This document shows, piece after piece, positions 7,166-30,570 of a stretch of DNA of 34,282 bases (position 1 is the stretch's first letter; every line of letters starts with the position of its first letter). Below the pieces are notes generated by a model. It was not told the DNA's origin. It worked only from the letters and a program-made list of their open reading frames with translations, and made no database searches. This DNA is from Alistipes senegalensis (GTDB lineage Bacteria > Bacteroidota > Bacteroidia > Bacteroidales > Rikenellaceae), in the NCBI GenBank assembly GCA_023665825.1, contig JAMPDE010000001.1:1227581-1261862 (forward strand), read 5' to 3'. The position numbers and the translations under genes were made by a program.

Positions 7166-7197
7166 CTTGCCGGTTTGAAAAAGAATCGTTAAATTTG
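7166..7197 (+). promoter_or_regulatory. Promoter of the surface lipoprotein / nuclease locus
   Basis: CTTG (7166-7169), a 20-base spacer and TAAATTTG (7190-7197) fit the Bacteroidetes consensus. The expected start near 7204 leaves a leader of about 80 bases before the ATG at 7283. Confidence 0.55.
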
Positions 7198-7282: not shown

Positions 7283-10200
7283 ATGAAAAACTCAATCTCC
7301 AAGTTATTGTTCGGGGCATGGGCGGTGCTTGCCGCCGGCTTGTTCGCCGCCTGCGTGGACGATAACGACGACAACGGGATGCCGTTCATCGAGGTGAATC
7401 CCGAGACGCTCGTATGCTCTCTCGACGGAATTTTTGAGGGGGGGGAAATTCCTTTGAGGTAAAATCCAACCGTGCGTGGACGCTCGTCGCCGAATCGGGC
7501 AGCGAATGGATCGAGTTCGAGCCCAAGCAGGGCCGCGAGGGCAAGACGAAAGTGGAATTGCTCGTGCCTTCGTCGAACGAGGGCCGGGTCGGCACGCTCA
7601 CTTTCCAGATCGCCAACGCTTACGGCGTGTACATGACCCAGTCGGTCGCCGTGCAGCAGGGCGATGCTCCCGTTGCCGGGCCTATCGCCTCGCTGGTCGC
7701 TTACATCAAGGAGAATTTGGCTTCTACATCGAGCGGTTCTACCGTCGATCTGAATTACTCGGAGCCGACCGTCGAGGGCGTCATTCTCGCCAACAACCAG
7801 TACGGCAACAATTTCGGCAAACTCTACGTGGGCGATAATGTCACCGCGCCCAATTCGGCCATTGTGCTCTACGATACCGGCGAGTTCACCAAAGACAAGA
7901 GTGCGAATTATCCCGTCGGCAAAAAAGTTACGCTCGACCTTTCCAACGCCAAATATACGCCCATCTACAACCTGCGCGAGTTGAAGGATGTCAAAATCGC
8001 GGTTTCGGACGAAGATGCCGTCGAGGTGGTCGTGCCGACGCTGACCGCCGCGCAATTCAAGACCGGCAACTATCAGGGCCAGTATGTCAAGATAACCGAC
8101 GTAACCCCGTTGGCCGAATTTGTCGGTCAGGCATGGGTTACAAATGCTAAACGTGCCGTGAAGTTGGATGCCGGCGGTGTGGAGATTCAGACTTATATGG
8201 CTACCGCTTCCGATGCGCCCGATTTCGCCAGCCTGCTTATCGCTGCCCAGCCGGGTGCCATTTGGGGTACGGCCGAGCAGCATAACAACGACGTTCAGAT
8301 TATCCCGACCAAGCCCGAAGACGTATTGGAACTTACTGCGGGCGGCGATCAGCCGGCCGTAACGACCGGTGGGGCGACCGCTGTCACGGCTGCATCGGTT
8401 ACGTTGTCCGGTTCTTCGCGCAACATCGACAACGCAACCGAAGTGGGCATCGCCTACAAAACCAATGACGCTACCGAAGTGGCTCCGACCGTTGTTCCGG
8501 CCGCTGCCGTCGCCGCAGAGTGGTCGGTGGAGGTCACCGGTCTGACCGAAGGCACTACCTATATGTATTATGCCTATGCGAAAGTCGGCGACACGGAATT
8601 CAAGGGCGCCGAGAAAACCTTTACGACCAAAACGATTTCCGACGCCGATATTTCGGTCGATTTTTCGGATATGTCGGTTTATCCGTCCGGCTTCCCCACA
8701 GGAAAAGGAACTACCGCGCTGGAAACGTATTTGTTTGGTGGCCTTTATAACATTGCCATTTGTGCACCGGATGCGTATTACAGATTGTCGTCAACCTTTG
8801 AAAATCAAGAATACACATGCCTATTCATGGGTAAAAAAGGGGCATATCTGGTACTTCCCGCACTTGAAGGCAAGTCGCTGATGAAGGTAGAGGCAAAGGC
8901 CAGCCCCAATGTAGCGGCCGGCGTCGAAATCGGCATATCGGATATGAACGATGCCGTAGTAGACGGTGGTGCGATTCAAGTATGGCAAAAAAATGGCACC
9001 TGTACCTATGAATTGAAAGGTACTACCGTTAATACCAGTTACAAACTCTATGTCAACAACGATAAGAATGTTCAGATCTCCACACTTGACCTTTATTATA
9101 TGGACGGGGAGGCTGTCAGTCTTTCACCTTCGACAAGTGAATTGACGTTCGAGCCTGATGAAACGACCGAACAGACGCAGGTGTATACATGGACTGGCAT
9201 TACAGACGGAGAATTAACCGTTTCGGTAGTACCTGAAGATTTCTTCACTGCGGACGTCGATGCCGATGGCAAGACCGTGAAAGTCACGCCGAAGGGTGAA
9301 AACGATTCCGATTCGCCGCGTACCGCTACCGTTACCGTCACTCTGACGGATAAAACGGACGCTTCCCGCACGGCCACCGCTACGATTTCCGTAACGCAGA
9401 AATCCCCTGCGCCGCAGCCTATCGACCAAATAATCGCTGGCGGGGCCGACAAGGATGCGTTCGTCGAGGGTGTGATTGTCGCCAAAAATACAAAGGGATT
9501 CATCTTGAAAGACGATACCGGTGTGGTGTATATTTATCTGAATGATGTGGTGCCGCAGAACATCGGTGACAAAGTGCAGGTGAAAGGTACGACCTATGTT
9601 CGCAACGGTGTGTTCCAAATCCAGAATAATCCTACGGTAACATTCGTCGAGACCGCTTCGTATACCCCGATGACACCGGAGCAGATGACCGCTTCGGAAA
9701 TCGATGCCTATGTGGGCGAAACCTCGTTTCCTGTAAAATACGTGCAGTATAAAGGCGTTTTGACCAATAGCGGCAGTTACTATAATGTCGAGATCGACGG
9801 CACCGCCGTGCAGGGCAGTATTCAGAATCCGCCGGCGAGCTTGAATCTTCCTGCGATGGTCGGTGCTCGCGTCGTCGTTACCGGTTATACCGTCGGAAAG
9901 AGCACTTCGGGCGGTACGACTTTCTTCAATACGATGGCGACGTCGGTCGAAGTCGATCCCAGTGCACCGGCGACGATTACAAAGGTCGATCCGAGTTCGT
10001 TGTCTTGGGCGAACGACGAGACGGACGCGCGAATCGTAACCGTCAAGGGTGCCAATCTGAACGGAATTACTTGCACGCTTTCCGGTGCCGGCAGCAGTCA
10101 TTTCACCGTCGTGGAGGGTGCTTCGACGACGACCGGTGCGATTACCACAATCGAGTTGACTGTTACGCCGACTGCCGCGAATACGGGCGCCGACGGTATT

Positions 10201-10701
10201 ACCGAAACCTTGACCGTCCAAGCCAACGGCGGCAACTCGAAAGAAATTATATTGGAACATAAAAAAATGCCGTCTGGGGATCAATTGGTTGTTACACTCG
10301 AAACGAAAAAGGGTTCGGGTTTACCAACTACCCAAAATACAACAGAAGAGGGTAGCGTAACGATTGGCTCTTATACATGGGGGACTTTTAATGTCAAACA
10401 AAACGATCAATATCTGATGATATACGGAAATACTGGTTATGTAGCAACCCCAGCAATAAGCGGAAAAACATTACAAAGTGTTGTGGTTACGACCAGTAGT
10501 GGTATTGCGGCGGCAGCGGCGGTTACAATTAAATCGACAGATGGAGCTATTGTTTCAGCGGAGCAAGTTGTCGGGGCGAAAAAAAATACTCCATTTACGT
10601 TTGATTTAATTGGGGCAACAGAAAACACCTCATATCGAATCAATTCTTCGGTATCGGGTAAGAATACGCAACTTGTGGAAATCAAGCTGATATACGAATA
10701 A
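7283..10701 (+). CDS. Large multidomain surface lipoprotein (BACON / DUF5689-like), frame broken in a G8 tract
   Basis: The ATG at 7283 opens a lipoprotein signal ending LFAAC (Cys24) with an acidic VDDNDD tail, the Bacteroidetes surface-export type. This frame stops at 7460-7462 after 59 codons. The rest (first internal ATG 7552) is open to 10701 in the -1 frame. One extra G in the run at 7438-7445 would join them into about 1139 residues. Approximate domains in that product: BACON 45-125, DUF5689-like 126-356, fibronectin III-like 358-451, beta-sandwich 452-608, BACON-like 608-708, second OB/DUF5689-like 710-893, BACON/Ig-like 893-993 and second beta-sandwich 996-1139. The two beta-sandwiches are clearly related (shared GKxL, DGAxV-like, NTSY and KNxQ patterns). 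It is likely a surface-exposed binding protein of the nuclease/TonB locus downstream; the ligand is unknown. Whether the break is phase variation, programmed slippage, decay or a sequencing error is open. Confidence 0.8.
7438..7445 (+). repeat. G8 homopolymer at the frame break
   Basis: Eight consecutive G, preceded by TTTTTGA and followed by AAATT. Upstream codons read GAG GGG GGG GAA and soon hit TAA. The -1 frame after GGG GGG reads GGA AAT TCC TTT GAG and continues into a normal BACON strand (NSFEVKSNRAW). Nine or six G would restore the frame. It is also a plausible slippery site for -1 ribosomal or transcriptional slippage. Confidence 0.85.
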
Positions 10702-10753
10702 ATTCCGTTCTCGCCTCCGGCAGACTTCGTTCTGCCGGAGGTCGGGACGGAAT
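10702..10753 (+). terminator. Long intercistronic hairpin (terminator or attenuator)
   Basis: CCTCCGGCAGA (10714-10724) pairs perfectly with TCTGCCGGAGG (10731-10741) around CTTCGT. An outer arm (10702-10713 with 10742-10753) extends the stem to about 23 pairs with one mismatch and some G-U pairs. It begins right after the stop codon of the lipoprotein gene. A T5 run occurs only about 10 bases downstream, and no promoter box is visible before the next ATG at 10790. Partial termination or mRNA stabilisation inside the operon seems more likely than full termination. Confidence 0.6.
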
Positions 10754-10789
10754 AGACGGACTTTTTGTTGATTTTTAACTTGAATCCGA

Positions 10790-12049
10790 ATGATTTTCAA
10801 AACGATATTTCGTTCGCGGACGGCCGTGCGGGTCGTAGCGGCGATATTCGGCATCGCGTCGTTCGCGATGACCGCTTGCAATGACGACGACGGGCCCGTC
10901 GGGCCGTTGGTCGAATGGGACTTGTCGAAGCCCATTTACCCCGACCAAGAGGGAAACGCCGTGCTGCTGCTTTCCGGTGCGGCCGGCACTTCGTGGACGG
11001 CCGAAATCATCTCCGGCGGCGACTGGGTGTCGTTCGGCCGGTCGGCTACGGCCGAACAGAGCGGCATCTCCGAAACGAGCGGCACGGTCGGCAAGGGCGT
11101 TGCCGGCACACGTCTGTTAGTCTATTATTGGCCCAATTCGACACCCGACGAACGGAGCGCCGTCATCCGCTTTGCGTATCAAGGGGCTGAGCCGGTCGCT
11201 TTGGAGCTGGTGCAGAACAGTGCGGCGGGCAATCGGAACATTTACCAGACCGGCAAGGACAAGGTCTGGCCCGAAATTCCGGCCCAATTGACGCGTAACA
11301 CACCTTATATAAAAACCGCCGACCTCATCTATGTGACCCATACGGCGCCGTTGACCGATCCTGCGACCGACCGCACGTTCAACGCGCGCAATTACACGTT
11401 GTGCTTCGACAAAACGAAGTTCGGCGCATGGTGGGTGGCTTATCCGCTCCACAAGGTCTACACCGGTTCGGGTCGTAACGAAAGTTGGACGTTCGACCCG
11501 AAAATCCCGTCGGAATATCAGGCCGACCTGACCCACAGTTATACGGATAGGAATCTCGATCGCGGGCACCAGATTCCGAATGCCGATCGCAGCGCGAATC
11601 TCACGATGCAGGCGCAGACGTACTATTTCTCGAACATGACGCCGCAAAATTCGCAGCTTAACCAAAAGCCATGGGCGAGGCTCGAAGCCAAAGCCCGCGA
11701 CAGTTGGATGTGCTCCGATACGCTTTATGTCGTTACGGGGGCTTGCTGGCAGACGAATACGACCAATACGACCACCGACGCTGCCGGTAAGGCGTGCCCC
11801 ATTCCCGACCACTATTTCAAGGTGTTCGTGCGTACGGTCGCCGGCAATGTCCGCGAGGAGGGCGACGAACTGTGGCGCCACGAATGCAAATCCATCGGCT
11901 TCTGGGTGGCGAATGCCGACGGTCAGGGCGAGGCGAAAGATTGGGTGAAGAGCGTCGCCGAAATCGAGCAATTGACCGGATTCGAGTTCTTCCCCACCGT
12001 CAGCGATGCCGTGAAGGAGCAGAAAGACCCCGCTTCGTGGGGGCTATAA
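10790..12049 (+). CDS. DNA/RNA non-specific endonuclease (NucA/Serratia type), surface lipoprotein
   Basis: 419 residues. The signal sequence ends FAMTAC with Cys30 followed by NDDDG, predicting an outer-membrane lipoprotein probably exposed on the surface. Residues about 40-145 look like a BACON-type beta-sandwich. The beta-beta-alpha metal nuclease domain follows (about 150-415). It has DRGHQ with His260 as general base, and SNMTPQNSQLN in which Asn291 is the probable Mg ligand by analogy with Serratia nuclease Asn119. Cleavage of extracellular DNA and RNA to oligonucleotides is the family activity. It follows the long hairpin and precedes the EEP-fold gene by 22 bases, so it belongs to the same locus as the TonB receptor. 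An N-terminal BACON domain on such a nuclease suggests anchoring or target binding. Start: the first ATG giving a proper lipoprotein signal. Confidence 0.93.
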   Translation: MIFKTIFRSRTAVRVVAAIFGIASFAMTACNDDDGPVGPLVEWDLSKPIYPDQEGNAVLLLSGAAGTSWTAEIISGGDWVSFGRSATAEQSGISETSGTVGKGVAGTRLLVYYWPNSTPDERSAVIRFAYQGAEPVALELVQNSAAGNRNIYQTGKDKVWPEIPAQLTRNTPYIKTADLIYVTHTAPLTDPATDRTFNARNYTLCFDKTKFGAWWVAYPLHKVYTGSGRNESWTFDPKIPSEYQADLTHSYTDRNLDRGHQIPNADRSANLTMQAQTYYFSNMTPQNSQLNQKPWARLEAKARDSWMCSDTLYVVTGACWQTNTTNTTTDAAGKACPIPDHYFKVFVRTVAGNVREEGDELWRHECKSIGFWVANADGQGEAKDWVKSVAEIEQLTGFEFFPTVSDAVKEQKDPASWGL

Positions 12050-12071
12050 CCGTCTGAAACGTATTGAGAAA

Positions 12072-13106
12072 ATGAAAAAAAATCTCTTTTTCACTTTGTC
12101 GCTCGTCGCGTTGTTCGCGGTCGGTTTCGCGCAGAAACCGTACAAAGTGGTCTTTTACAACCTCGAAAATTTCTTCGATACGATCAACGACCCTGAAGTG
12201 CGCGACGACGAGTTCACTCCCGACGGGCCCAAACAGTGGAATACGGCCAAATACCGGAAGAAACTGGACAACGTCGAACGGGTGCTTTTCGGTATCGCCG
12301 CGTCCGACAAGAACTATCCGGCCGTCATCGGCGTGTCGGAGGTCGAGACGCGTTCGGTGCTCGAAGACATCGTCGCTACGCCGAAACTCGCTCCGGCCGA
12401 CTACCGCATCGTGCACTACGATTCGCCCGAAGCGCGCGGGGTCGACGTCGCGTTCTTGTACCGTCCAGACGTCTTCAAGCTCGAAGGCAGTTTTCCCGTG
12501 CGGACGGTCGTGCCGACGTTGCCCAACTTCAAGACGCGCGACATTCTGACCATGTGGGGTACGATCGCCGACGAGCCGTTTTTCTTCATGGTGGCGCACT
12601 GGCCGTCGCGTTTGGGCGGCAAGGAGGCTTCGGAGTTCAAGCGGATCGCCGTCGGCGAGCAGATGCGGCGCATCGCCGATTCGGTACTGGCCGTGAATCC
12701 GGCGACGAAAATCCTCGCGATGGGCGACTTCAACGACGACCCGACGGACAGGAGCATCGCCGAAGGGCTCGGCGGCCGTGCCAAACTCAAAACGCTGGCC
12801 AAAGGGGAGTTCTTCAATCCTTTCGCCGAGATGCACCGTGCGGGGCTGGGTACGCTGGCTTACGGCGACGCTTGGAATCTGTTCGACAACATCGTCGTGA
12901 CGGAGAACTTGGCGACGGGTTCGGAGGGCGAGCTGCGATTGCAGCGGGCGCCCGGCTCGAAGTACTACGGCAACATCTTCAAGCAGCACTACATGGTGCA
13001 GCGCGAGGGTCAGTTCAAGGGGTATCCGTTGCGTACGTTCGTCGGTAACAATTTTCAGGGCGGGTACAGCGACCACTTCCCCGTCTATGTCTATTTCGCC
13101 AAATAA
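12072..13106 (+). CDS. Secreted endonuclease/exonuclease/phosphatase-fold enzyme
   Basis: 344 residues. A Sec signal (KKNLFFTLSLVALFAVGFAQ) with no lipobox sends it to the periplasm or outside. The DNase I-like fold is shown by YNLENFFD near the N-terminus, GVSEVE with the metal-binding Glu near residue 92, RGVDVAFLYRP, VAHWPSR, MGDFNDDP (about 217-224) and a C-terminal YSDHFPVYVYF with the catalytic Asp-His. All key residues of the family are present. Members hydrolyse phosphodiester or phosphoester bonds in nucleic acids, sugar phosphates or lipids. The neighbours, a surface nuclease and a TonB receptor, point to oligonucleotide or nucleotide processing, which is inference. It sits 22 bases after the nuclease gene and 15 bases before the receptor. 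Confidence 0.9.
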   Translation: MKKNLFFTLSLVALFAVGFAQKPYKVVFYNLENFFDTINDPEVRDDEFTPDGPKQWNTAKYRKKLDNVERVLFGIAASDKNYPAVIGVSEVETRSVLEDIVATPKLAPADYRIVHYDSPEARGVDVAFLYRPDVFKLEGSFPVRTVVPTLPNFKTRDILTMWGTIADEPFFFMVAHWPSRLGGKEASEFKRIAVGEQMRRIADSVLAVNPATKILAMGDFNDDPTDRSIAEGLGGRAKLKTLAKGEFFNPFAEMHRAGLGTLAYGDAWNLFDNIVVTENLATGSEGELRLQRAPGSKYYGNIFKQHYMVQREGQFKGYPLRTFVGNNFQGGYSDHFPVYVYFAK

Positions 13107-13121
13107 AAACATTCGCATATC

Positions 13122-15896
13122 ATGAAAATCAAAACATTATTGACCCTGATCCTGTCCGTCGCGACGCTTTCTGCCTTTGCGCAGGGCGGCGGCATCACGG
13201 GCAAGATCGTGTCGCGAGCGGGGCGGAGTGCGCTCGCCGGCGTGAAGGTGACGATGACGCCCGGCGAACGGACGACCGTTTCCGATGCGGAGGGCGAGTT
13301 CTTGTTCGACGACGTTCCGGCCGGCAGTTACTCGTTGACGTTCGAGGCGGAGGAGTTCGAGCCGTCGACCATCGCCGTGCGGGTCGAGCGGACGCTTCGC
13401 GACCTCAATATGGTCGTGCTCGTGCCCGCTATGCCGCAGCAGACGCTCGACGACGCCATTTTCGCGGAGTTCGACACTGAAACGACCGACGATGCGCAGT
13501 CGTTGCCGACTTCGCTTTCGGCATCGAAAGATATTTTCAATAACATTGCGTCGTACAAATTCAGCGAGATGCGTTTCAATGTGCGCGGCTATGATTCGCA
13601 GAATCAGGACGTTTACATGAACGGCATCCGGCTCAACGACGCCATGACCGGTTATACGCCTTGGTCGCTGTGGAGCGGTCTGAACGACGCCACCCGCAAC
13701 CAAGAAGTGACGTCGGGCATCGAAATGTCCGATGTCGGTCTGGGCGGCATCGGCGGTACGACCAATATCAACACCAGCCCGTCGCAGATGCGCAAGGGTC
13801 TGCGTGCCAGTCTGGTAAACGGCAACTCGATGTATCGGTTCCGCGCGATGGTTTCCTACGCTTCCGGTTATCAAGACAACGGGTGGGCGTATGCTTTCTC
13901 GCTTTCGACCCGTCAGGGCGGCAACTCCTACGTGCAAGGCGTCTATTACAACGCCTACGGCTATTTCGCCGCCGTCGAAAAACGCTTCGATGCACGTCAT
14001 CGGCTGGCGTTGACGCTCTTGGGCGCACCCACCGAACGCGGTGCGCAGCAGGCCGCCACGCAGGAGGCCGCCACGCAGGAGGCCTACGACTTGGTCGGCA
14101 ACAATTACTACAATCCCAACTGGGGCTGGCAGAACGGCAAACGCCGCAATGCCCGCGTGCGCGACAACCACGAACCCATCGTGCTGTTGAACTATGCGTT
14201 CGATATTTCCGACCGTTCGCAGTTGAGGCTGGCGACCTCCCTCCGTTTCGGTAAGAACGGCTATTCCGCGCTGACTTGGCAGAACGGCCCCGACCCGCGC
14301 CCCGATTATTACCGCAAATTGCCCAGTTATCTCGCTTCGGATGGCAACGCGCTCGGTGCGGCTTGGCAGGCGGTCTATTGGCAGGCGAATTACGACAATA
14401 TCCGCCACTTCGACTGGGACGGCATGTACCGGACCAACTACATCCAGAACAGCCCCGCCGACGAGGAGGTTTACGGGCCCGGCCACCGCTCGAACTACAT
14501 GGTCGAGGAGCGGCATACCGACCAGCTCGACTGGAATTTCGCGGCCAATTTCTCGCATCTGTTCCGCGATAATTCAAAGCTCAACGGCGGTTTGCGCTTG
14601 CGCCGCAACCGCACGGAGTATTATTCGCAGGTGAAAGACCTGTTGGGCGGCGATTATTGGGTCGATATCGACAAGTTCGCCGAACGCGATTTCGCATCGG
14701 ACGTGCTGGCCTACCAGAACAATCTGGATTACTACGACCGATACGGCCACGCCCACGCTGCGAAAGTGGGGGACAAGTACAGCTACGATTACTATGCCCA
14801 CGTGTTGAACAGCGATGTTTGGCTTTCCTACAACATGAATTTCGGCGGATTGGGCATTACGGTCGGCGGCGAAATCGGTTATGCCGCGATGTGGCGCGAG
14901 GGTCTGTGGCGCAAGGGCTTGTTCCCCGACAACTCCAAAGGCGATTCCAAGACGCTGGATTACCTCACTTACAAAGGCAAAGCCAATTTCACGTACCGTT
15001 TCTCGGCAGCGCACGCTGTTGAAGCGAATATCGTCTACATGCAGAAAGCACCCGAATTCCAGTCGGCCTTCGTGTCGCCCCGTACCCGCAACACGATTAC
15101 GCCGGGTATTTCGCCCGAGCGCGTTTTCGGCATCGATGCGGCTTACTCGCTGCGGCTGGGCGATATCAAGGCGCGCGTTTCGGGATACTATACCCGCGTG
15201 AATAATCAGTCGAAAGTGATGTCCTATTACGACGACGTGGCGGCCACGTACACCAATTTCGCCATGAGCGGCATCGACAAGCTCTACTTCGGTCTCGAAG
15301 CAGCCGTTTCCGTGCCGCTCTACCGCACGCTCACGCTCAACGGAGCCGTCAGCTGGGGTCAGTACACCTACGACTCGAATCCCGATTACATCCAGACGCA
15401 GGACAACAGCGGCAGCATCGTTTCGTCGGGCAAGGTCTACTGGAAGAACTTCCGGTTGGAGAGCACGCCTCAGACGGCGGTCAATATCGGCTTGTCCTAC
15501 CGGTCGAACAAGAACGTCTACCTCTCGGCCGATTTCAACTATTACAATAACATGTATCTGTCGATGAGCCCCATCTATCGCACCGACGCGGTGATTACCT
15601 CCGGCATGTCGACCGCCGACATCGCCAATATGCGCCGGCAGGAGCGTTTCGACGGGGCCTATACGCTCAATGCCAGCATCGGCAAGAACTGGTTCATCCA
15701 CCGGAAGTATACGCTGGGCTTCAGCCTCGACGTCAAGAACATCCTGAACGACCAGTCGATCAAGACCGGCGGTTACGAGCAGACCCGTCTCTCGAAGAAT
15801 ACCGAAACGACCGTGACTTCCTACCAACCGTTCGATTCCAAGTATTTCTACCTCTTCGGGACGACCTATTACCTGAATATCTATTTCCGTTTCTGA
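13122..15896 (+). CDS. SusC-like TonB-dependent outer-membrane receptor
   Basis: 924 residues. A Sec signal (MKIKTLLTLILSVATLSAFA) is followed by a carboxypeptidase-regulatory-like beta-sandwich (about 23-105; GKIVSRAGRSALAGVKV, GEFLFDDVPAGSYSL). The plug comes next (about 120-235; FNVRGYDSQNQDVYMNG, GGIGGTTNINTSPS), then a 22-strand-type barrel ending in YLNIYFRF with the terminal Phe used for outer-membrane assembly. It imports a substrate through the outer membrane using TonB energy. No SusD follows; a DUF5689-type lipoprotein takes that place 25 bases downstream. With two nuclease-type enzymes upstream, oligonucleotides or nucleotides are the likely cargo, though this is inference. A perfect 15-bp tandem duplication adds a second AATQE in a turn near residue 315. 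Confidence 0.92.
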   Translation: MKIKTLLTLILSVATLSAFAQGGGITGKIVSRAGRSALAGVKVTMTPGERTTVSDAEGEFLFDDVPAGSYSLTFEAEEFEPSTIAVRVERTLRDLNMVVLVPAMPQQTLDDAIFAEFDTETTDDAQSLPTSLSASKDIFNNIASYKFSEMRFNVRGYDSQNQDVYMNGIRLNDAMTGYTPWSLWSGLNDATRNQEVTSGIEMSDVGLGGIGGTTNINTSPSQMRKGLRASLVNGNSMYRFRAMVSYASGYQDNGWAYAFSLSTRQGGNSYVQGVYYNAYGYFAAVEKRFDARHRLALTLLGAPTERGAQQAATQEAATQEAYDLVGNNYYNPNWGWQNGKRRNARVRDNHEPIVLLNYAFDISDRSQLRLATSLRFGKNGYSALTWQNGPDPRPDYYRKLPSYLASDGNALGAAWQAVYWQANYDNIRHFDWDGMYRTNYIQNSPADEEVYGPGHRSNYMVEERHTDQLDWNFAANFSHLFRDNSKLNGGLRLRRNRTEYYSQVKDLLGGDYWVDIDKFAERDFASDVLAYQNNLDYYDRYGHAHAAKVGDKYSYDYYAHVLNSDVWLSYNMNFGGLGITVGGEIGYAAMWREGLWRKGLFPDNSKGDSKTLDYLTYKGKANFTYRFSAAHAVEANIVYMQKAPEFQSAFVSPRTRNTITPGISPERVFGIDAAYSLRLGDIKARVSGYYTRVNNQSKVMSYYDDVAATYTNFAMSGIDKLYFGLEAAVSVPLYRTLTLNGAVSWGQYTYDSNPDYIQTQDNSGSIVSSGKVYWKNFRLESTPQTAVNIGLSYRSNKNVYLSADFNYYNNMYLSMSPIYRTDAVITSGMSTADIANMRRQERFDGAYTLNASIGKNWFIHRKYTLGFSLDVKNILNDQSIKTGGYEQTRLSKNTETTVTSYQPFDSKYFYLFGTTYYLNIYFRF
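14052..14084 (+). repeat. 15-bp tandem duplication in the receptor gene
   Basis: GCCGCCACGCAGGAG occurs twice back to back (14052-14066 and 14067-14081), followed by a partial third GCC. It encodes AATQE-AATQE-A in frame, inside a predicted turn of the barrel. The identity at the DNA level suggests a recent duplication. Confidence 0.85.
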
Positions 15897-15921
15897 CAGC
15901 GGCGGACAAAGACGAAATGTT

Positions 15922-17043
15922 ATGATGAAATACCAATTATCCACTTTGATTTCGAGCGTCGCGGCGGGGTTGCTGCTCGTCGGATGTTACAACGATTTCG
16001 ACACTCCGTCGCCTGCGCCGGTCATGACCGACGAACAGATGCTGGAAGACGGCCTCGCCTATATTTCGATCGGGGATTTGAAGCAGAAATTCTATTCGGC
16101 CAAAGGCGATAATCCGGGCCAGCCCGGCTCGCTGACCATCGCCGAGCCGTTGTATACGCGCGGAAAGGTCATTTCGAGCGACCGCGACGGCAACATCTAC
16201 AAGTCGCTTTATATTTACGACAGCGGGAGCCAATCCGCGATTGAATTGAAACTCGCTTCGGGCAATTACCTGTTCCATCCTGTCGGTCAGATCGTGTTCG
16301 TGAAGTTGCAGGAGCTCGTCGTCGGGAATTATCGCGGCATGTTGAGCATCGGTACGCGTTCTTCCGACACGAACTATTCCAACGACAACATCGAAACCGA
16401 CATCCTGCGTCGGGAGCATATTTTCGCCGGCGAACAGCAGGCGATGCTCGCTTCCGACACGTTGGTGATTACGAAGGAAAACTACACGACGGTACTGAAC
16501 GAGAGCAACGGCATGTATGGTCAAAACGCATTGGGCCGACTGGTACGCTTCGAGGGGGTAAAAAGCCATTACGGTACGGCTAAATGGGGTTACCAGAATA
16601 CGTTCCCCAATTATTTCGCCAACAGCACCTCCTACGATGTCAATTCGCCCGGTTGGAGCGATATTCCCGAGTGGGCCACTTGGGCGGCCAAACGTGCTTT
16701 GCCCAATGCGAGCGGTTCTTTCACGGAGACCTATTTCTACGGTTCCGCATGGTTCACCTACGCCGACCCGAACGAGGGTGCTCAAGGGAAGTATACGCCC
16801 GGAAATTACGTCATCCGCACGAGCGGTTACAGTTCGTTCCGTGACGGCCGTATCCCGGCCGACGGTGCAACGGTCGATATCACGGCCATCTACACGATTT
16901 ATACGAGTTCGAGTGCGACGCCGGCTACGGCCAAAGGCAACTGCGCCTACCAGTTGGTGCTCAACAGCGAAAAGGATGTCGTCGTGAAAAACGATGGATC
17001 GGAGACCTCCGACGAGCCTGCAAATCCCGATTCGCAGGAATAA
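15922..17043 (+). CDS. DUF5689-type lipoprotein, partner of the TonB receptor
   Basis: 373 residues from the ATG at 15922 (a second ATG at 15925 is equally possible). The signal ends LLLVGC with YNDFDTP after the Cys, predicting an outer-membrane lipoprotein. Residues about 45-190 have the DUF5689 pattern: SIGDLKQKFYSA, TRGKVISSDRDGNIYKSLYIYD, GQIVFVKLQELVVG and a YRGMLSIG segment. This suggests an OB-like beta barrel of the kind that often binds nucleic acid. The fold is inferred from the strand pattern, not proved. The C-terminal half (about 190-355) is rich in aromatic residues and not assigned; the last 15 residues are acidic and likely disordered. It occupies the SusD position after the receptor, so I read it as the surface lid or capture protein. 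It is the last gene before a strong terminator. Confidence 0.85.
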   Translation: MMKYQLSTLISSVAAGLLLVGCYNDFDTPSPAPVMTDEQMLEDGLAYISIGDLKQKFYSAKGDNPGQPGSLTIAEPLYTRGKVISSDRDGNIYKSLYIYDSGSQSAIELKLASGNYLFHPVGQIVFVKLQELVVGNYRGMLSIGTRSSDTNYSNDNIETDILRREHIFAGEQQAMLASDTLVITKENYTTVLNESNGMYGQNALGRLVRFEGVKSHYGTAKWGYQNTFPNYFANSTSYDVNSPGWSDIPEWATWAAKRALPNASGSFTETYFYGSAWFTYADPNEGAQGKYTPGNYVIRTSGYSSFRDGRIPADGATVDITAIYTIYTSSSATPATAKGNCAYQLVLNSEKDVVVKNDGSETSDEPANPDSQE

Positions 17044-17061: not shown

Positions 17062-17107
17062 GAAAAGCGAGCCGTGTCCGACGAAAATCGGACACGGCTC
17101 GCTTTTC
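17062..17107. terminator. Bidirectional terminator closing the nuclease/TonB locus
   Basis: A perfect 20-bp stem (17062-17081 with 17088-17107) around the loop CGAAAA, with AAAA and TTTT at the base of the stem, so it works on both strands. It separates the DUF5689 lipoprotein gene from the convergent esterase gene. Confidence 0.92.
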
Positions 17108-17124: not shown

Positions 17125-18561
17125 TTACTGCGCAGGCTGACGGTCGGGACGATCCGACCGGAACGGTACGGCCGGATGCCCGTAGACGTTGATCAGATTT
17201 CCGGGCAGATAGTTGCGGAACGCATACCGCACGGCTTTCGGTTCGGCCACTGCGGGCGAAACGACCTCTACGATGGATTTCGACTTCACGATACGGCCCT
17301 TTGCCTTGTAGAAAACGCCGTCGGCTCCGGCCAGCTCAAATCCCGTAATCGTTTGTCCGAGCGGGCCGATTCCCATGCGGAGTTCTCCGAAATGCACGAA
17401 TGCTTTGCCGTTGCGGAATTCCACTTTCGTGTAGTGCGGTGCTTCGGTGTCGAACAACTCTTTGCGGTCGTAGGTTCGACGGAGGGCGGCGAGTGCCAGC
17501 CGTTCGCCGATGGGGCGTTTCGGTGCCGGATGGATGCAGTTCGCATCGCCTATGTCCGTCGTCGCAATCAGCGCGGCATTGGGAATGAGTTTCATCGCAT
17601 CGCTTTGCGCTTCGACCACTTGTGCCGCGTCGATTCCCATCGGGTCGCCATAGACGTGAGGGGCGATCTGAATGCACAGGAAGGTCATCCGGTTCTCTGT
17701 GTCGCTCCATGCCGTGCGCCAGTCGGCGACCATCCGTTCCAGCAGGCGGGCGTAGTGCGGTGCTTCGCTGCGGTTGGATTCGCCTTGATACCAGACGAAT
17801 CCGCGCGCCGCATAACCGGCGATCGGCGTGATCATTCCGTTGCGTAGGGTTCCGCATTTCGCATTCGGATGGATTTTCGGGTCGGCATTGATTTTTTCGA
17901 TGTCGTAACCCATTCCGCGCAGGTCGTCGACGTTCGACCACGCTTCGATTTTCGAGCCGCCCCAGCTGGTCGAAACGATGCCGACCGGCACGTCGAGCGC
18001 CTGCGTCAGTGCCCGCGCGAAAAAGTATCCTACGGCGCTCATGTGCGGGGCCGTCGTGGGCGAGGGTACCTCCCAGCGCCCTTCTACGTCGTCCAGCGGT
18101 TGCATGGCATCGCGGCGTTTGACCGTCAGCATGCGGATGCGGCCGGCGTATTCGGGCGATTCGAGTACGGTCGGAAGCGCATCGTCGACCGGTTGCCCCA
18201 CGTAGCCGCACAGCGGCATGTACATGTTCGACTGTCCCGAGCAGATCCACACTTCGCCGATGAGCAGGTTGCGCAGCACCACTTTCGAGTCCCGGTCGCT
18301 GACGGTCAGCGTTTGCGGTTCGTAGGAACCGGCCGGTGTGGGCAGTTCCGCGCTCCAGCGGCCTTGTTCTACGGTCGCACGGACGGGTTTTGCGGCCCAC
18401 GATGCTTTCAGCAGCACCTCTTTGGCATCCGAACGTCCCCAGATGCGGACATTCTGTTGTTGTTGCAGTACGGCGTTGTCCCCGAATATCGAGGGCAGGG
18501 TTACTTCGGCCGCCGCAGGCGATGCGATGGCCGCAAGCAATACGATAATCCACTTTTTCAT
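17125..18561 (-). CDS. Secreted sialate O-acetylesterase (SGNH/GDSL hydrolase)
   Basis: 478 residues from the ATG at 18561 with a Sec signal (KKWIIVLLAAIASPAAA). The SGNH blocks are visible: CSGQSNMYM with the nucleophile Ser near residue 108, VWYQGESNR and the catalytic pair in GDANCIHPAPKRPIGE. The family removes O-acetyl groups from sialic acid or from plant polysaccharides; which one cannot be told here. An ATG at 18651 lies within the -7 box of its own promoter and would place the signal peptide internally, so it is rejected. It is monocistronic, convergent with the locus upstream and divergent from rlmD. It may help the cell use mucin or dietary glycans. Confidence 0.9.
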   Translation of the reverse strand: MKKWIIVLLAAIASPAAAEVTLPSIFGDNAVLQQQQNVRIWGRSDAKEVLLKASWAAKPVRATVEQGRWSAELPTPAGSYEPQTLTVSDRDSKVVLRNLLIGEVWICSGQSNMYMPLCGYVGQPVDDALPTVLESPEYAGRIRMLTVKRRDAMQPLDDVEGRWEVPSPTTAPHMSAVGYFFARALTQALDVPVGIVSTSWGGSKIEAWSNVDDLRGMGYDIEKINADPKIHPNAKCGTLRNGMITPIAGYAARGFVWYQGESNRSEAPHYARLLERMVADWRTAWSDTENRMTFLCIQIAPHVYGDPMGIDAAQVVEAQSDAMKLIPNAALIATTDIGDANCIHPAPKRPIGERLALAALRRTYDRKELFDTEAPHYTKVEFRNGKAFVHFGELRMGIGPLGQTITGFELAGADGVFYKAKGRIVKSKSIVEVVSPAVAEPKAVRYAFRNYLPGNLINVYGHPAVPFRSDRPDRQPAQ

Positions 18562-18648
18562 CTTCGGATCAGTGTGTTTTTTAGGTTTGTAAGATTTTAT
18601 CGGGCATGTTTCGGCCGAATCGACGAACCGGTTCCGTCCGAAACCAAA

Positions 18649-18680
18649 CAAAGATAGCCGAAACCCGATAGACGGCCAAA
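18649..18680 (-). promoter_or_regulatory. Promoter of the esterase gene
   Basis: On the - strand, TTTG (18680-18677), a 20-base spacer and TATCTTTG (18656-18649) are a full match to the Bacteroidetes consensus. Transcription should begin near 18642, giving a leader of about 80 bases to the ATG at 18561. Confidence 0.75.
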
Positions 18681-26189: not shown

Positions 26190-26229
26190 CAGCGAGGAAA
26201 AAATTTCAATGTATTATAAAGAGGTATTT

Positions 26230-27384
26230 ATGAAGCGAAATTTTGTAAAGACGGCTTTGGCGGTTTGTTCGCTGGCCGTTGTTTCGTGCGGACAGGCGCC
26301 GACGGCCATGCGGCCCGCCGAGTACGCCGTGCTGACGGTCGGTACGACCGATCGGGAGATTCCGAGCCACTATTCGGCGATGATTCGCGGACGTCAGGAC
26401 ATCGACATCTACCCGCAGGTGAGCGGGACCATTTCGGAGGTGTGCGTGGTCGAGGGCCAGCAGGTCGAGAAGGGGCAGCCTTTGTTCATCATCGACCAAG
26501 TGCCTTACAAGGCCGCCTTGCAGACGGCCGAAGCCAACGTCGCCGCTGCCAAAGCCGGCGTCGCTACTGCGAAGCTGACCTATGACAGCAAAAAGGAACT
26601 GTTCGCCAACAAGGTGGTTTCGCAGTTCGACCTTTCGACCTCGAAAAACCAGCTGCTGACCGCCCAAGCGCAGCTCGCGCAGGCCGAAGCCCAGCGCGTG
26701 AATGCGGCGAACAACCTCTCCTATACGGTCGTGAAGGCTCCGTCCAACGGCGTCATCGGAACGTTGCCTTACCGTGTGGGGGCGTTGGTCAGCGCAGGGT
26801 TGCCCCAGCCGCTGACTACCGTGTCCGACAATTCGGACATGTACGTCTATTTTTCGATGACCGAAAACCAGTTGCTCGCCCTGACCCGTACCTACGGTTC
26901 CATCGCCAATACGTTGAAGAGCATGGCCGACGTGCAGCTGCGGTTGAACGACGGTTCGCTCTACGACAAGTCGGGCCGCATCGAGACCATCAGCGGCGTC
27001 ATCGACCCTTCGACGGGTACCGTGTCGTTGCGGGCCGTCTTCGAGAACAAGGGCGGGTTGTTGCACAGCGGCGGTGCCGGCAGCATCATTCTGCCGACCT
27101 CGTACAAGGATTGCATCGTCGTACCCCAGCGGGCTACGTTCGAGGTGCAGGACAAGGTCTATGTCTATAAGGTCATCGACGGTATGGCTGTCTCGCAGAT
27201 GATCGACGTCGAGAAAATTTCCGACGGCAAGGAGTACATCGTCCGCAGCGGTCTGATGCCGGGCGACGTCATCGTCGCCGAAGGCGTCGGTCTGATGCGC
27301 GAGGGTACGCCCATTGTCGCCAAAGGTTCGCAGGCTCCTGCTGCACCGCAGGCCGCTGAATCCGAAACCGGAAAGGAGGAATAA
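26230..27384 (+). CDS. RND efflux periplasmic adaptor (membrane fusion protein), lipoprotein
   Basis: 384 residues from the ATG at 26230, which gives a proper lipoprotein signal (LAVVSC, Cys20); an ATG at 26209 would add seven residues. The adaptor bridges the inner-membrane pump and the outer-membrane channel. The barrel-sandwich halves are DIYPQVSGTISEVCVVEGQQVEKGQPLF and YTVVKAPSNGVIGTLPYRVG. Between them lies an Ala- and Gln-rich alpha hairpin (about 85-150), then a beta-barrel (MYVYFSMTENQLL) and a membrane-proximal domain. First gene of a three-gene AcrA/MexA-like operon. Its last codons (AAG GAG GAA TAA) form a perfect AAGGAGG Shine-Dalgarno sequence for the next gene. Confidence 0.93.
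   Translation: MKRNFVKTALAVCSLAVVSCGQAPTAMRPAEYAVLTVGTTDREIPSHYSAMIRGRQDIDIYPQVSGTISEVCVVEGQQVEKGQPLFIIDQVPYKAALQTAEANVAAAKAGVATAKLTYDSKKELFANKVVSQFDLSTSKNQLLTAQAQLAQAEAQRVNAANNLSYTVVKAPSNGVIGTLPYRVGALVSAGLPQPLTTVSDNSDMYVYFSMTENQLLALTRTYGSIANTLKSMADVQLRLNDGSLYDKSGRIETISGVIDPSTGTVSLRAVFENKGGLLHSGGAGSIILPTSYKDCIVVPQRATFEVQDKVYVYKVIDGMAVSQMIDVEKISDGKEYIVRSGLMPGDVIVAEGVGLMREGTPIVAKGSQAPAAPQAAESETGKEE
27373..27379 (+). promoter_or_regulatory. Shine-Dalgarno sequence of the RND pump gene
   Basis: AAGGAGG lies 8 bases before the ATG at 27388, within the final Lys-Glu-Glu codons of the adaptor gene. Such a full match is unusual in Bacteroidota, which mostly start translation without it. Confidence 0.7.
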
Positions 27385-27387
27385 CCC

Positions 27388-30300
27388 ATGACACTCAAAA
27401 GTTTTATCGAACGCCCCGTATTGGCGTCGGTCATTTCGATTCTGATCGTCATCGCCGGTATCATCGGCTTGGCGTCGCTGCCCATCGAGCAGTATCCCGA
27501 TATCGCGCCTCCGACGGTCATGGTACGTGCCTCCTATCCGGGTGCCAGTGCCGAAACCATCCAGAAATCGGTCATCGTGCCGTTGGAGGAGGCCATCAAC
27601 GGCGTGGAGGACATGGATTACATCACGTCCAGCGCGGCCGTCGGCAGTGCTTCGTTGCAGATTCTGTTCCGTCAGGGCACCGACCCCGACATGGCGGCCG
27701 TCAACGTGCAGAACAAGGTTTCGCGTGCGACGGGTCTGCTGCCGTCCGAAGTTACGCAGATCGGCGTCACGACCATGAAGCGCAACCCGTCGATGGTCAA
27801 GATTTTCGCCTTGTACAGCCCCGACGATTCGTACGACGAAACATTCCTCTCGAACTACGCCAAAATCAATATCGAGCCCCGTATCCAGCGTATTCAGGGG
27901 GTCGGCGAGGTCATGACGTTGGGTGCCACCTATTCGATGCGCGTCTGGCTGAAGCCCGACATCATGGCGCAGTACAAACTGATTCCGTCCGACATCACGG
28001 GCGTGCTGGCCGAGCAGAATATCGAGGCGGCTACCGGTACGTTGGGCGAGAATGCCGATGTCGCGTTCCAGTATACGATGAAGTATCGCGGCCGCAGGAT
28101 GACCCCCGAAGAGTTCGGCGATATCGTGATCCGTTCGACTTCCGACGGCGAAGTGCTCCGCTTGAAAGACGTTGCCGAAATCGAACTCGGCAGCGAATCC
28201 TATGGTTACAGGGGTTTTACGAACGGTCATCCGGGTATCAGTACGATGGTCTTCCAGACGGCCGGTTCGAATGCTACGCGAGTAGTCGAGGAGGTCGATG
28301 CCCTGCTCGAAGAGGTGAGCCTCGACCTGCCCAAAGGCGTGGCCATCGCCCACCTGCACAGCGTCAACGACTTCCTTTACGCTTCGATGAACGAGGTGCT
28401 CAAAACCCTTATCGAGGCCATTATTCTCGTCGTCTTGGTCGTCTATGTCTTCTTGCAGGACATCCGGTCGACCTTGATTCCGACCGTTTCGATTCTCGTC
28501 GCGTTGATCGGTACGTTCGGCTTCCTCGCCGTCGCCGGTTTCTCCATCAACCTGCTGACGTTGTTCGCGCTCGTGTTGGCTATCGGTACGGTGGTCGACG
28601 ATGCCATCATCGTCGTCGAGGCGGTGCAGGCGCGTTTCGACGTCGGTTACAAATCGTCCTATATGGCTACGATCGACGCCATGTCGGGTATCACTTCGGC
28701 GATCGTCACTTCGACGCTGGTATTCATGGCCGTGTTCATTCCCGTCGCCATGATGGGCGGTACTTCGGGTATCTTCTACACGCAGTTCGGTATCACGATG
28801 GCCGTCGCCGTCGGTATTTCGGCTCTGAACGCCCTGACGCTTTCGCCTGCGCTTTGCGCGCTGCTGTTGAAACCCTACATGGACGAGAACGGCGAGATGC
28901 GCGATAACTTCGCCGCCCGCTTCCGCAAGGCTTTCAACGCCATTTTCACGGCGATGATCAACAAATACAAGTACGGCGTGCTGCTCTTCATCAAGCACCG
29001 TTGGCTCACGTGGTCGACGCTTGCGCTGGCTTTTGCGGCTCTCGTCGTGCTGATGAATACCACTAAGACCGGTCTTGTTCCCGACGAGGATCAGGGTACT
29101 ATCATGGTCAATGTGACCGCCGCTCCGGGGTCGTCGCTCGAATCGACGCACCGTATCATGGAGCAAATATCCGAACGCATCGAGGGCATCCCGCAGATCC
29201 GCGACTACATGCGTGTAGCCGGTTACGGTATGATTGCCGGTCAGGGTTCGTCCTACGGTATGTGTATCATCAAGTTGAAGGATTGGGAGGAGCGTCCCGA
29301 CAAGGCGGACGCCGTGCAGTCGGTCATCGGACAGATTTACGGCCGCACGATGGACATCAAGGATGCGCAGATTTTCGCCGTTGCTCCGCCGATGATTTCG
29401 GGTTACGGTTCTTCGACCGGTTTCTCGATGCACTTGCAGGATCGGGCCGGCGGCGAATTGACCGATTTCTATAATGTTTATCAGCAATTCATCGGCGCGC
29501 TGAATCAGCGTCCCGAAATCGCGATGGCCTATTCGACCTTCAACATCAATTTCCCGCAGTACGTCGTGGATGTCGATGCCGCCAAAGCCAAACGTGCCGG
29601 CGTTTCGCCGAATACCGTTCTTTCGACGTTGGCCGGTTATTACGGCGGACAGTACGTGTCGAACATCAACCGGTTCTCGAAGATGTACTACGTCACGATG
29701 CAGGCCGACCCGCAGTACCGCCTCGATCCCGAGTCGCTCGACCATGCGTTCGTGCGCCTGAACAACGGCGAAATGGCTCCTTTGAGCCAGTTCGTGACCC
29801 TCACGAAGGTGTACAGCTCCGAAGTGTTGAACCGTTTCAACCTCTATAACTCGATCGCCGTGAACGGTACGGCTGCCGACGGATATTCGTCCGGCGACGC
29901 CATCCGCGCCATTCGCGAAACCGCCGAGCAGGTATTGCCGCGCGGCTACGGTTACGAGTTCGACGGTATCAGCCGCGAGGAGGCCCGCACGGGCAGCAAC
30001 ACCGCCATCATCTTCGGTATCTGTATTCTTCTGATTTATCTGATTTTGAGCGCGCTTTACGAGAGTTTCATCATTCCGTTCGCCGTCATTCTTTCCGTGC
30101 CGTGCGGTCTGATGGGTTCGTTCGTCTTCGCCAAAATCATGGGATTGGAGAACAACATCTACCTCCAAACGGGTCTTATCATGTTGATCGGTCTGTTGTC
30201 CAAGACGGCCATTCTGTTGACCGAGTACGCCGGCGACCGCCGTCGGGCGGGCATGACGCTTACGCAGGCCGCTGTTTCGGCCGCCAAAGTCCGTCTGCGT

Positions 30301-30570
30301 CCTATTCTGATGACCGTCCTCACGATGGTGTTCGGTATGATTCCGCTGGTGCTTGCGCACGGTGTCGGCGCCAACGGCAACTCGACGCTCGGTTCGGGTG
30401 TCGTCGGCGGTATGATTATCGGTACGTTGGCGCTGTTGTTCCTCGTGCCTGCGCTCTTCATCGTCTTCCAGACCATTCAGGAGAAGATCAAACCGTTGGA
30501 GCTGGATCCCGATCCGCAGTGGTCGGTGCGTGCCGAAGTCGAGGACTGCCAAAACGAAAAGGAGGAATAA
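27388..30570 (+). CDS. RND multidrug efflux pump, inner-membrane transporter (HAE1/AcrB type)
   Basis: 1060 residues, the normal size for a proton-driven drug exporter with 12 transmembrane segments and two large periplasmic loops. TM1 starts at the N-terminus (FIERPVLASVISILIVIAG), followed by SLPIEQYPDIAPPTV. The proton-relay residues are Asp404-Asp405 in TVVDDAIIVVEA (TM4) and Lys939 in GLLSKTAILLTEYAG (TM10), matching AcrB Asp407, Asp408 and Lys940. It should export hydrophobic or amphipathic compounds such as bile salts, dyes or antibiotics; the real substrates are unknown. It starts three bases after the adaptor stop and ends four bases before the channel gene, so all three parts are co-expressed. 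Confidence 0.95.
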   Translation: MTLKSFIERPVLASVISILIVIAGIIGLASLPIEQYPDIAPPTVMVRASYPGASAETIQKSVIVPLEEAINGVEDMDYITSSAAVGSASLQILFRQGTDPDMAAVNVQNKVSRATGLLPSEVTQIGVTTMKRNPSMVKIFALYSPDDSYDETFLSNYAKINIEPRIQRIQGVGEVMTLGATYSMRVWLKPDIMAQYKLIPSDITGVLAEQNIEAATGTLGENADVAFQYTMKYRGRRMTPEEFGDIVIRSTSDGEVLRLKDVAEIELGSESYGYRGFTNGHPGISTMVFQTAGSNATRVVEEVDALLEEVSLDLPKGVAIAHLHSVNDFLYASMNEVLKTLIEAIILVVLVVYVFLQDIRSTLIPTVSILVALIGTFGFLAVAGFSINLLTLFALVLAIGTVVDDAIIVVEAVQARFDVGYKSSYMATIDAMSGITSAIVTSTLVFMAVFIPVAMMGGTSGIFYTQFGITMAVAVGISALNALTLSPALCALLLKPYMDENGEMRDNFAARFRKAFNAIFTAMINKYKYGVLLFIKHRWLTWSTLALAFAALVVLMNTTKTGLVPDEDQGTIMVNVTAAPGSSLESTHRIMEQISERIEGIPQIRDYMRVAGYGMIAGQGSSYGMCIIKLKDWEERPDKADAVQSVIGQIYGRTMDIKDAQIFAVAPPMISGYGSSTGFSMHLQDRAGGELTDFYNVYQQFIGALNQRPEIAMAYSTFNINFPQYVVDVDAAKAKRAGVSPNTVLSTLAGYYGGQYVSNINRFSKMYYVTMQADPQYRLDPESLDHAFVRLNNGEMAPLSQFVTLTKVYSSEVLNRFNLYNSIAVNGTAADGYSSGDAIRAIRETAEQVLPRGYGYEFDGISREEARTGSNTAIIFGICILLIYLILSALYESFIIPFAVILSVPCGLMGSFVFAKIMGLENNIYLQTGLIMLIGLLSKTAILLTEYAGDRRRAGMTLTQAAVSAAKVRLRPILMTVLTMVFGMIPLVLAHGVGANGNSTLGSGVVGGMIIGTLALLFLVPALFIVFQTIQEKIKPLELDPDPQWSVRAEVEDCQNEKEE
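30559..30565 (+). promoter_or_regulatory. Shine-Dalgarno sequence of the efflux channel gene
   Basis: AAGGAGG lies 9 bases before the ATG at 30575, again formed by the Lys-Glu-Glu-stop end of the preceding gene. It supports the 30575 start over the upstream in-frame start at 30530. Confidence 0.7.

What the first reader, a model, noticed from the sequence alone, without database searches (positions are those of the whole stretch)
7283..17043. Locus that looks like a nucleic-acid utilisation system built on a SusC-like receptor without SusD
Five co-directional genes encode a large BACON/DUF5689-like surface lipoprotein, a surface-anchored NucA/Serratia-type nuclease with all catalytic residues, a secreted EEP-fold enzyme, a TonB-dependent receptor and a DUF5689-type lipoprotein. 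They are bounded by a promoter at 7166 and a perfect 20-bp terminator at 17062. The order (binding protein, degrading enzymes, SusC-like importer, lipoprotein partner) copies a polysaccharide-utilisation locus, but every enzyme acts on phosphodiesters and no SusD or glycosidase is present. I infer capture and cutting of extracellular DNA/RNA, import of oligonucleotides and further processing in the periplasm, as a source of phosphate, nucleobases or carbon. DUF5689 replacing SusD as the receptor lid would be new to my knowledge.
Basis: partly seen in the sequence, partly recalled or inferred. Interest (0 to 1): 0.78.

Follow-up and report, generated by a model that had tools for sequence, protein, structure and literature searches.

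The report
Outer-membrane DNA importer with nucleases
A bacterial gene cluster pairs an outer-membrane import channel and a surface lipoprotein, relatives of two proteins that a related bacterium needs to take up DNA for natural transformation, with two nuclease-type enzymes, so it probably brings DNA across the outer membrane, either as genetic material or as food.

Summary
The five co-directional genes are real, except that gene 1 is broken in this assembly by a frameshift at eight Gs (7438-7445). Genes 3-5 (EEP enzyme, TonB-dependent receptor, DUF5689 lipoprotein) are homologues of a unit in Riemerella anatipestifer, matched by recA-to-comEC gene order (RA0C_RS04910/04915/04920). Published markerless deletions of that receptor and of that DUF5689 gene abolish natural transformation. 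The window receptor is 29% identical to Riemerella's, in one tree group but on a separate deep branch. An EEP gene lies within 7 kb in 56 of 57 named loci with room. In the window's order a PF01223 nuclease joins: NUC-EEP-receptor-DUF5689 in 12 of 13 related loci, the thirteenth cut by its contig end. DUF5689 is fused to other nucleases elsewhere. Best reading: a TonB-dependent outer-membrane DNA importer whose nucleases cut or trim the DNA. Whether the DNA feeds ComEC or is digested is open; a second, diverged receptor/DUF5689 set exists in the genome. New variant of a known kind.

The parts
7283..7462 (+). g1 start fragment: signal peptide and lipobox (LFAAC), 59 codons, then stop
7438..7445 (+). 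run of eight G at which gene 1 changes frame (assembly error, null mutation or slippage; not decidable here)
   Evidence: the genes at this place in six relatives (L067, L068, L069, L071, L073, L074) are open through their signal peptide
7438..10701 (+). g1 body: DUF5689 plus BACON-like protein (stop-to-stop frame as it stands)
   Evidence: PF18942 1.4e-13; BACON below cut-off
10790..12049 (+). g2: PF01223 DNA/RNA non-specific nuclease with lipobox (TAC/NDDDG, by eye)
   Evidence: alignment to Serratia nuclease 1ql0, 1.3e-16, with DRGH, SNxTPQ and WARLE stretches kept
12072..13106 (+). g3: EEP-superfamily enzyme PF19580 with signal peptide (by eye); homologue of the EEP gene at the RA0C_RS04910 position
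   Evidence: 34% over 406 aligned columns
13122..15896 (+). g4: TonB-dependent receptor (CarboxypepD_reg, plug); homologue of the receptor at the RA0C_RS04915 position
   Evidence: 29% over 911 aligned columns, 3e-117
15922..17043 (+). g5: DUF5689 lipoprotein; homologue of the protein at the RA0C_RS04920 position, without its C-terminal DUF5017 / choice-of-anchor J domain
17062..17107 (+). perfect 20-bp stem, 6-base loop: terminator, probably shared with the convergent gene 17125-18651
7167..7197 (+). possible Bacteroidota-type promoter (TTG-N20-TAAATTTG)
   Evidence: relaxed pattern only; no control run

Best explanation
The locus encodes a TonB-dependent outer-membrane importer for DNA (possibly nucleic acid in general), of the same wider family as the receptor/DUF5689 pair that Riemerella needs for natural transformation. 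The DUF5689 lipoprotein(s) bind DNA at the surface and hand it to the SusC-like receptor, which moves it inward with TonB energy. The surface PF01223 nuclease and the exported EEP enzyme cut the DNA or trim one strand before or during passage. In the periplasm the product goes to ComEC (transformation) or is degraded to nucleotides and phosphate (nutrition), or both. Shown by calls: gene content, homology to the Riemerella unit, conserved gene order, nuclease motifs. Shown by others in Riemerella: receptor and DUF5689 gene essential for transformation, TonB loss lowers it. Inferred: DNA as the cargo here, the direct contacts, the order of steps and the fate of the DNA.
For: Gene order in L206 (recA, four genes, comEC, two genes, EEP, receptor, DUF5689+DUF5017) fits RA0C_RS04870 recA, RS04895 comEC, RS04910, RS04915, RS04920 in steps of five; the genus is Riemerella by an exact 1-kb stretch shared between its member G651 and named R. 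columbipharyngis and equal contig length. Markerless RS04915 and RS04920 deletions are below the limit of 4.2e-10 against 5.4e-5 in the parent (PMC8459023 section 18). tonBA loss lowers transformation without the iron defect seen in tonBB (PMC8383284 sections 20-21). Window and Riemerella receptors: 29% over 911 columns, same A+P group of the tree, split from B/F receptors by a fully supported branch. EEP within 7 kb in 64 of 72 named loci, 56 of the 57 with upstream room. PF01223-EEP-receptor-DUF5689 in 12 of 13 relatives. DUF5689 fused to EEP, Endonuclease I and PLD domains. In 120 family-f4 genomes 4 of 4 without comEC lack DUF5689, 3 of 116 with comEC do. The window genome has ComEC, DprA, a three-HHH-repeat protein and a DUF1343 protein.
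Against: g5 is only weakly similar to the Riemerella lipoprotein (1e-7 over 72 residues in a two-sequence test; 38.8 bits against a 475-bit cut-off for NF052645) and lacks its C-terminal domain. If B/F are the outgroup, the window and Riemerella receptors lie on two sides of the deepest split of the A+P group. The window genome has a second, diverged receptor (G000:C11:716027-718303) near two DUF5689 genes; its P clade is sister to the A clade of the window's order, so either copy could keep the Riemerella role. comEC lies 315 kb away. Flavobacterium johnsoniae has the homologues but was not transformable in the test cited (PMC8459023). Essentiality in Riemerella might be indirect. No structure could be predicted. 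The comEC/DUF5689 co-absence rests mainly on one genus (two near-complete genomes); the other two genomes are 56% and 81% complete.
Confidence: 0.6

Rival explanations
1. Nutritional nucleic-acid utilisation: the lipoproteins bind DNA/RNA, the surface nuclease and EEP cut it, the receptor imports oligonucleotides for phosphate, bases or carbon. No role in transformation.
For: PF01223 nuclease in the operon in 12 of 13 relatives of the order but in 0 of 72 named, nearly all flavobacterial loci (home-made profile over called ORFs), as if this version were adapted to digestion; a gene-1-like protein in front in 8 of 12 same-family relatives (weak tblastn matches); phosphate-starved F. johnsoniae induces TonB-dependent transporters and extracellular EndA nucleases (PMC8115612, passages seen).
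Against: The homologous pair is essential for transformation in Riemerella; the EEP-receptor-DUF5689 core occurs without PF01223 in those 72 loci; no regulation data.
Confidence: 0.35
2. DNA-entry machine for natural transformation in this genome (the other sub-case): g4/g5 bring long DNA to the periplasm, g2 or g3 act as entry nucleases (as EndA, a PF01223 protein, does in pneumococcus; recalled), and ComEC takes one strand.
For: Riemerella genetics; ComEC, DprA, HHH-repeat and DUF1343 genes present; comEC/DUF5689 co-absence in family f4.
Against: No transformation is known to me for this genus; a surface non-specific nuclease would shred donor DNA; ComEC matched in all 45 genomes tried and HHH in all 34, so they are little evidence; dprA, DUF1343 and the HHH gene lie 17, 7 and 23 kb from the locus, but this linkage was not seen in 5 of 5 congeners (other contigs or at least 200 kb away).
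Confidence: 0.35
3. The receptor imports something else (for example an inositol phosphate or a nucleotide cofactor), the EEP enzyme being a phosphatase; the transformation phenotype in Riemerella is indirect, through nutrition or surface change.
For: EEP-superfamily members include phosphomonoesterases (recalled); M949_1556, whose NCBIfam family includes the Riemerella DUF5689 protein (599 bits), is reported to affect antigenicity and pathogenicity (title in a reference list), which could mean a general envelope effect.
Against: Non-specific nuclease in the same operon in 12 of 13 relatives; DUF5689-nuclease fusions; weak ExeM/NucH DNase match of the Riemerella EEP protein (5.4e-5, far under its cut-off).
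Confidence: 0.15

Closest known systems
Riemerella anatipestifer RA0C_RS04915/RS04920 natural-transformation pair (with the neighbouring EEP gene, RS04910 by position)
   Same: TonB-dependent receptor of the same A+P group, adjacent DUF5689 lipoprotein, EEP gene next door
   Different: window unit is one co-directional run with EEP upstream instead of divergent, adds a PF01223 nuclease and a BACON-like/DUF5689 protein, lacks the DUF5017 domain, is not near comEC
SusC/SusD polysaccharide-utilisation loci
   Same: SusC-like receptor, surface lipoproteins, enzymes in one transcription direction
   Different: no SusD and no glycosidase in the run
TonB receptors with a non-SusD lipoprotein partner (BtuB/BtuG, HmuR/HmuY; recalled, not tested)
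   Same: receptor and surface lipoprotein in adjacent genes
   Different: the DUF5689 profile has no significant match among solved chains (best 0.26); the receptor profile finds only matches to its N-terminal domain at E<=0.01
F loci of other class genomes (unnamed): LTD plus T9SS-tail protein, receptor, then a T9SS-tail protein with DUF5689 and/or a nuclease domain
   Same: receptor with DUF5689 and a nuclease (Endonuclease I in L114, PLD in L119)
   Different: different receptor clade; nuclease fused to DUF5689; in L118 the nuclease protein shows no DUF5689 at E<=0.01

Membership tests
Riemerella-type transformation receptor/DUF5689 pair | receptor in the same tree group as the RA0C_RS04915 position | tested here: met
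   full-length, 29% identity, A+P group apart from B/F by a 100 SH-aLRT branch; A alone is not one clade (P is nested), and window and Riemerella lie on separate deep branches within it
Riemerella-type transformation receptor/DUF5689 pair | DUF5689 lipoprotein directly downstream | tested here: met
Riemerella-type transformation receptor/DUF5689 pair | lipoprotein carries C-terminal DUF5017 / choice-of-anchor J | tested here: not met
Riemerella-type transformation receptor/DUF5689 pair | EEP gene beside the receptor | tested here: met
Riemerella-type transformation receptor/DUF5689 pair | linked to comEC | tested here: not met
   315 kb apart; also on another contig in Chryseobacterium G012 and in 2 of 6 Riemerella genomes, so not a general mark
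Riemerella-type transformation receptor/DUF5689 pair | needed for natural transformation | not testable with these tools
   bench work
NCBIfam NF052645 (M949_1556 family lipoprotein) | score over 475 bits | tested here: not met
   g5 38.8 bits; Riemerella L206 599, L175 484, Chryseobacterium L134 753
SusCD utilisation locus | SusD-family partner | tested here: not met
   (24 distinct ORFs)
PF01223 non-specific nuclease | over cut-off with catalytic motifs | tested here: met
   (which residues are catalytic is recalled)
PF19580 EEP enzyme | over cut-off with conserved N, E, GDxND and SDH motifs | tested here: met
   (motif meaning recalled)
OB-fold nucleic-acid-binding domain (for DUF5689) | recognisable OB-fold similarity | tested here: inconclusive

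The most novel reading that the evidence does not exclude
Many Bacteroidota may import long DNA across the outer membrane with a TonB-driven SusC-like channel capped by a DUF5689 lipoprotein, instead of type IV pili and a secretin, with a dedicated EEP entry nuclease (and, in the window's order, also a PF01223 nuclease); the window holds that order's form of this machine.
Probability: 0.4. Interest if true: 0.88.

Novelty: new variant of a known kind. Interest (0 to 1): 0.62.

Why it matters
How DNA crosses the outer membrane in Bacteroidota is an open question for which PMC8459023 gives a speculative model. The present comparison puts its two essential Riemerella proteins in a three-gene unit with an EEP enzyme found in 56 of 57 named loci with room. 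In that paper's main text RS04910 occurs once, as the upstream gene of an expression check, and the step from double to single strand is left to an unidentified protein. The unit is also found in the window's order, where a Serratia-type nuclease joins it (the paper's text says both that RS04915 homologues are widely distributed in the Bacteroidetes phylum and that they were found only in Flavobacteriaceae; its supplement was not seen). If right, DNA uptake and DNA scavenging in these bacteria become testable with single-gene removals.

Tried and rejected
Ordinary PUL with a missed SusD: none in 24 distinct scanned ORFs. Group B receptors (first thought to be the competence orthologue): another clade, and the one scanned with its neighbours sits beside PGI and an acyltransferase (L111); dropped. 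F loci as the Riemerella orthologue: rejected by tree and gene order. f23 loci (DUF5689-EEP fusion with an OMP_b-brl_4 receptor): different receptor family, kept only as a fusion. comEC linkage as a general mark: present in 4 of 6 Riemerella genomes (G567, G617, G631, G642; other contigs in G599 and G651), not in the window. DUF1343 co-occurrence: 12 of 14 carriers and 10 of 18 non-carriers of the A receptor, p 0.07 without phylogenetic correction; not used. dprA, DUF1343 and HHH genes near the locus: not seen in 5 of 5 congeners (some on other contigs, so not strictly excluded); not used as evidence. OB fold for DUF5689: inconclusive. Solved-structure searches gave close relatives only for the nuclease. 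My early note that f3, f5 and f6 genomes were Bacteroides-like was wrong: the tree sets f5 with Flavobacterium. Notebook entry 6 miscounts the loci of the window's order; the right count is 11 of 12 same-family relatives plus L107, the miss (L072) ending at its contig end.
Full report
What is there. The window is G000:C11:1227581-1261862 of a 2.27-Mb genome in 29 contigs, 88% complete. On the + strand, genes 2-5 are open and tightly spaced: PF01223 nuclease (10790-12049), PF19580 EEP enzyme (12072-13106), TonB-dependent receptor (13122-15896) and DUF5689 lipoprotein (15922-17043). Gene 1 begins at 7283 with a lipoprotein signal but meets a stop after 59 codons; its DUF5689/BACON-like body is open from 7438 in another frame, the switch lying at eight G. 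The genes at this place in six relatives are open through their signal peptide, so this is an assembly error, a null allele or slippage; I cannot tell which. The 20-bp terminator stem is perfect. No SusD was found (24 distinct ORFs).

What it is related to. The only paper in the held library that names DUF5689 is the Riemerella anatipestifer transposon screen PMC8459023 (passages and sections 18, 19 and 21 read). There RA0C_RS04915 (CarboxypepD_reg outer-membrane protein) and RA0C_RS04920 (DUF5689 plus DUF5017) are essential for natural transformation, both as markerless deletions (below the limit of 4.2e-10 against 5.4e-5). To test whether the window pair belongs with them I ran the one named genome scan with a Chryseobacterium lipoprotein, which brought 72 loci including Riemerella columbipharyngis (L175), and two family searches. 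Genome G651 shares an exact 1-kb stretch with L175 and its contig length, so its genus (g274) is Riemerella; each of the 6 g274 genomes in the sample has exactly one DUF5689 match. In G617 (L206) the order recA, four genes (dinB and sdhB/A/C by my reading), comEC, two genes, EEP, receptor, DUF5689 fits the tags RS04870, RS04895, RS04910, RS04915, RS04920 in steps of five; recA, comEC and the last three were confirmed by family scans, and the lipoprotein and receptor have the domains the paper gives. That G617 is the type strain itself is likely from its length, but that is recalled; that RS04910 is the EEP gene is inferred from the order.

Homology of the window genes to L206: receptor 29% over 911 columns, 3e-117; EEP 34% over 406 columns, 4e-72; DUF5689 protein weak in a two-sequence test (1e-7 over 72 residues), but C22, P29, V83, D87, G90, N91, K94 and G122 of g5 are invariant in an alignment with six relatives, and all 35 members of alignment A2, g5 first, match PF18942. 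In a profile search of 198 class genomes 39 have a receptor of at least 650 bits; the next match has 452 bits and is a fragment (counted by me from the listing). A 63-receptor tree (quick method, SH-aLRT only; 63 chosen from the 123 receptor-like ORFs; group labels set by score) separates the A and P receptors from B and F by a fully supported branch; P is nested in A, and one F row lies in B. If B/F are the outgroup, the flavobacterial receptors, Riemerella's among them, and the window's lie on two sides of the deepest split of that group. Other TonB receptors were not included.

Conserved neighbourhood. In the 72 named loci (all have DUF5689 by construction; many are near relatives, so not independent) the A receptor is adjacent in 67 and an EEP gene lies within 7 kb in 64; of the 8 without EEP, 7 lack upstream sequence and one (L205) has room: 56 of 57. 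PF01223 is in 0 of 72 (home-made profile, score over 60, called ORFs). In the window's order, 13 relatives were examined: NUC, EEP, receptor and DUF5689 in this order in 12, in one of them (L107) with the nuclease cut by the end of the held stretch; the thirteenth (L072) ends at its contig edge beside the receptor. A gene-1-like protein precedes in 8 of 12 same-family relatives by weak tblastn matches. DUF5689 is fused to EEP (L089), Endonuclease I (L114) and PLD nuclease (L119) in other loci; these are three examples, not a census. Two f2 loci carry SusC-like, SusD-like and DUF5689 genes together (L096 by domain scan; L097 by gene order), so DUF5689 does not always stand in for SusD.

Link to transformation beyond one species. 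In 120 family-f4 genomes, comEC is missing in 4 and DUF5689 in 7; all 4 without comEC lack DUF5689 (Fisher p 4e-6; 1e-3 for the 112 near-complete genomes). Two of the four are one genus and the other two are incomplete, so this is about one independent event. The window genome has ComEC, two DprA genes, a three-HHH protein and a DUF1343 protein; ComEC matched in 45 of 45 and HHH in 34 of 34 genomes tried, so these weigh little. TonB matters in Riemerella: tonBA and tonBB mutants transform less, and the tonBA mutant shows no iron-uptake defect in the streptonigrin test (PMC8383284, abstract and sections 20 and 21 read). Against a simple phosphate-hunger link: phosphate removal lowers transformation there (abstract). 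Against transformation: F. johnsoniae has the homologues without observed competence.

Which copy does what. The window genome has a second receptor (716027-718303, 27% identity, no Pfam hit at E<=0.01) and two DUF5689 genes nearby on the other strand, with obg between. Receptors about 30% identical to the window's occur in many of the 61 family genomes searched; five were put in the tree and form the P clade, and none of these five loci has an EEP match within its 20 kb. Since P and the A clade of the window's order are sisters, the transformation role could have stayed with either, and the nuclease-rich A operon might be the scavenging version. This is the main reason why I hold nutrition and transformation equally likely; both are sub-cases of the best explanation.

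Mechanism, with marks. Shown here: gene content, order, homology, nuclease motifs. Shown by others in a relative: receptor and lipoprotein essential, TonB loss lowers transformation. Inferred: DUF5689 binds DNA and caps the receptor; g2 and g3 cut or trim; DNA reaches the periplasm.

Novelty. Searches listed no other paper that, by title or start of abstract, deals with this pair; one search listed 25 of its 32 papers and 12 of its 34, listed papers were otherwise not read (for instance PMC7965970 on Riemerella columbina), and subscription journals are mostly not held. The pair is known from Riemerella; the constant EEP gene and the added PF01223 nuclease are not in the parts of PMC8459023 that I saw.

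Noticed in passing
window 7438-7445: Run of eight G breaks gene 1; could be a slippage switch of a surface lipoprotein or an assembly error.
   Followed up: partly
G000:C11:713530-718303 (L079): Second, diverged receptor convergent with two tandem DUF5689 lipoproteins, with obg between; similar receptors in many family genomes, and 2 of the 5 such loci examined (L081, L083) have a PF01223 match within 20 kb.
   Followed up: partly
window 13122-15896 and L107: The closest receptor (71%) is in another family (f35, G272), nearer than five congeners (58-62%); suggests horizontal transfer of the operon.
   Followed up: no
G000:C11:1217059-1268609: dprA, DUF1343 gene, the locus and a three-HHH gene lie within 52 kb; not seen in five congeners.
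   Followed up: partly
G000:C11:691684-692313 and 1217059-1217688: Two strong DprA matches in one genome.
   Followed up: no
L114-L122: Loci of other class genomes: LTD plus T9SS-tail protein, receptor, then DUF5689 fused to Endonuclease I (L114) or a PLD nuclease (L119).
   Followed up: partly
L206 15731-17134: The Riemerella transformation lipoprotein scores 599 bits for NCBIfam 'M949_1556', a gene reported under antigenicity and pathogenicity; two literatures may describe one gene.
   Followed up: partly
(control genomes): DUF5689 also matches over its cut-off in Bacillus subtilis; which gene was not shown (the OB-fold nuclease YhcR is my guess from memory).
   Followed up: no
window 26209-31939: RND efflux trio (HlyD, AcrB, OEP families).
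   Followed up: no
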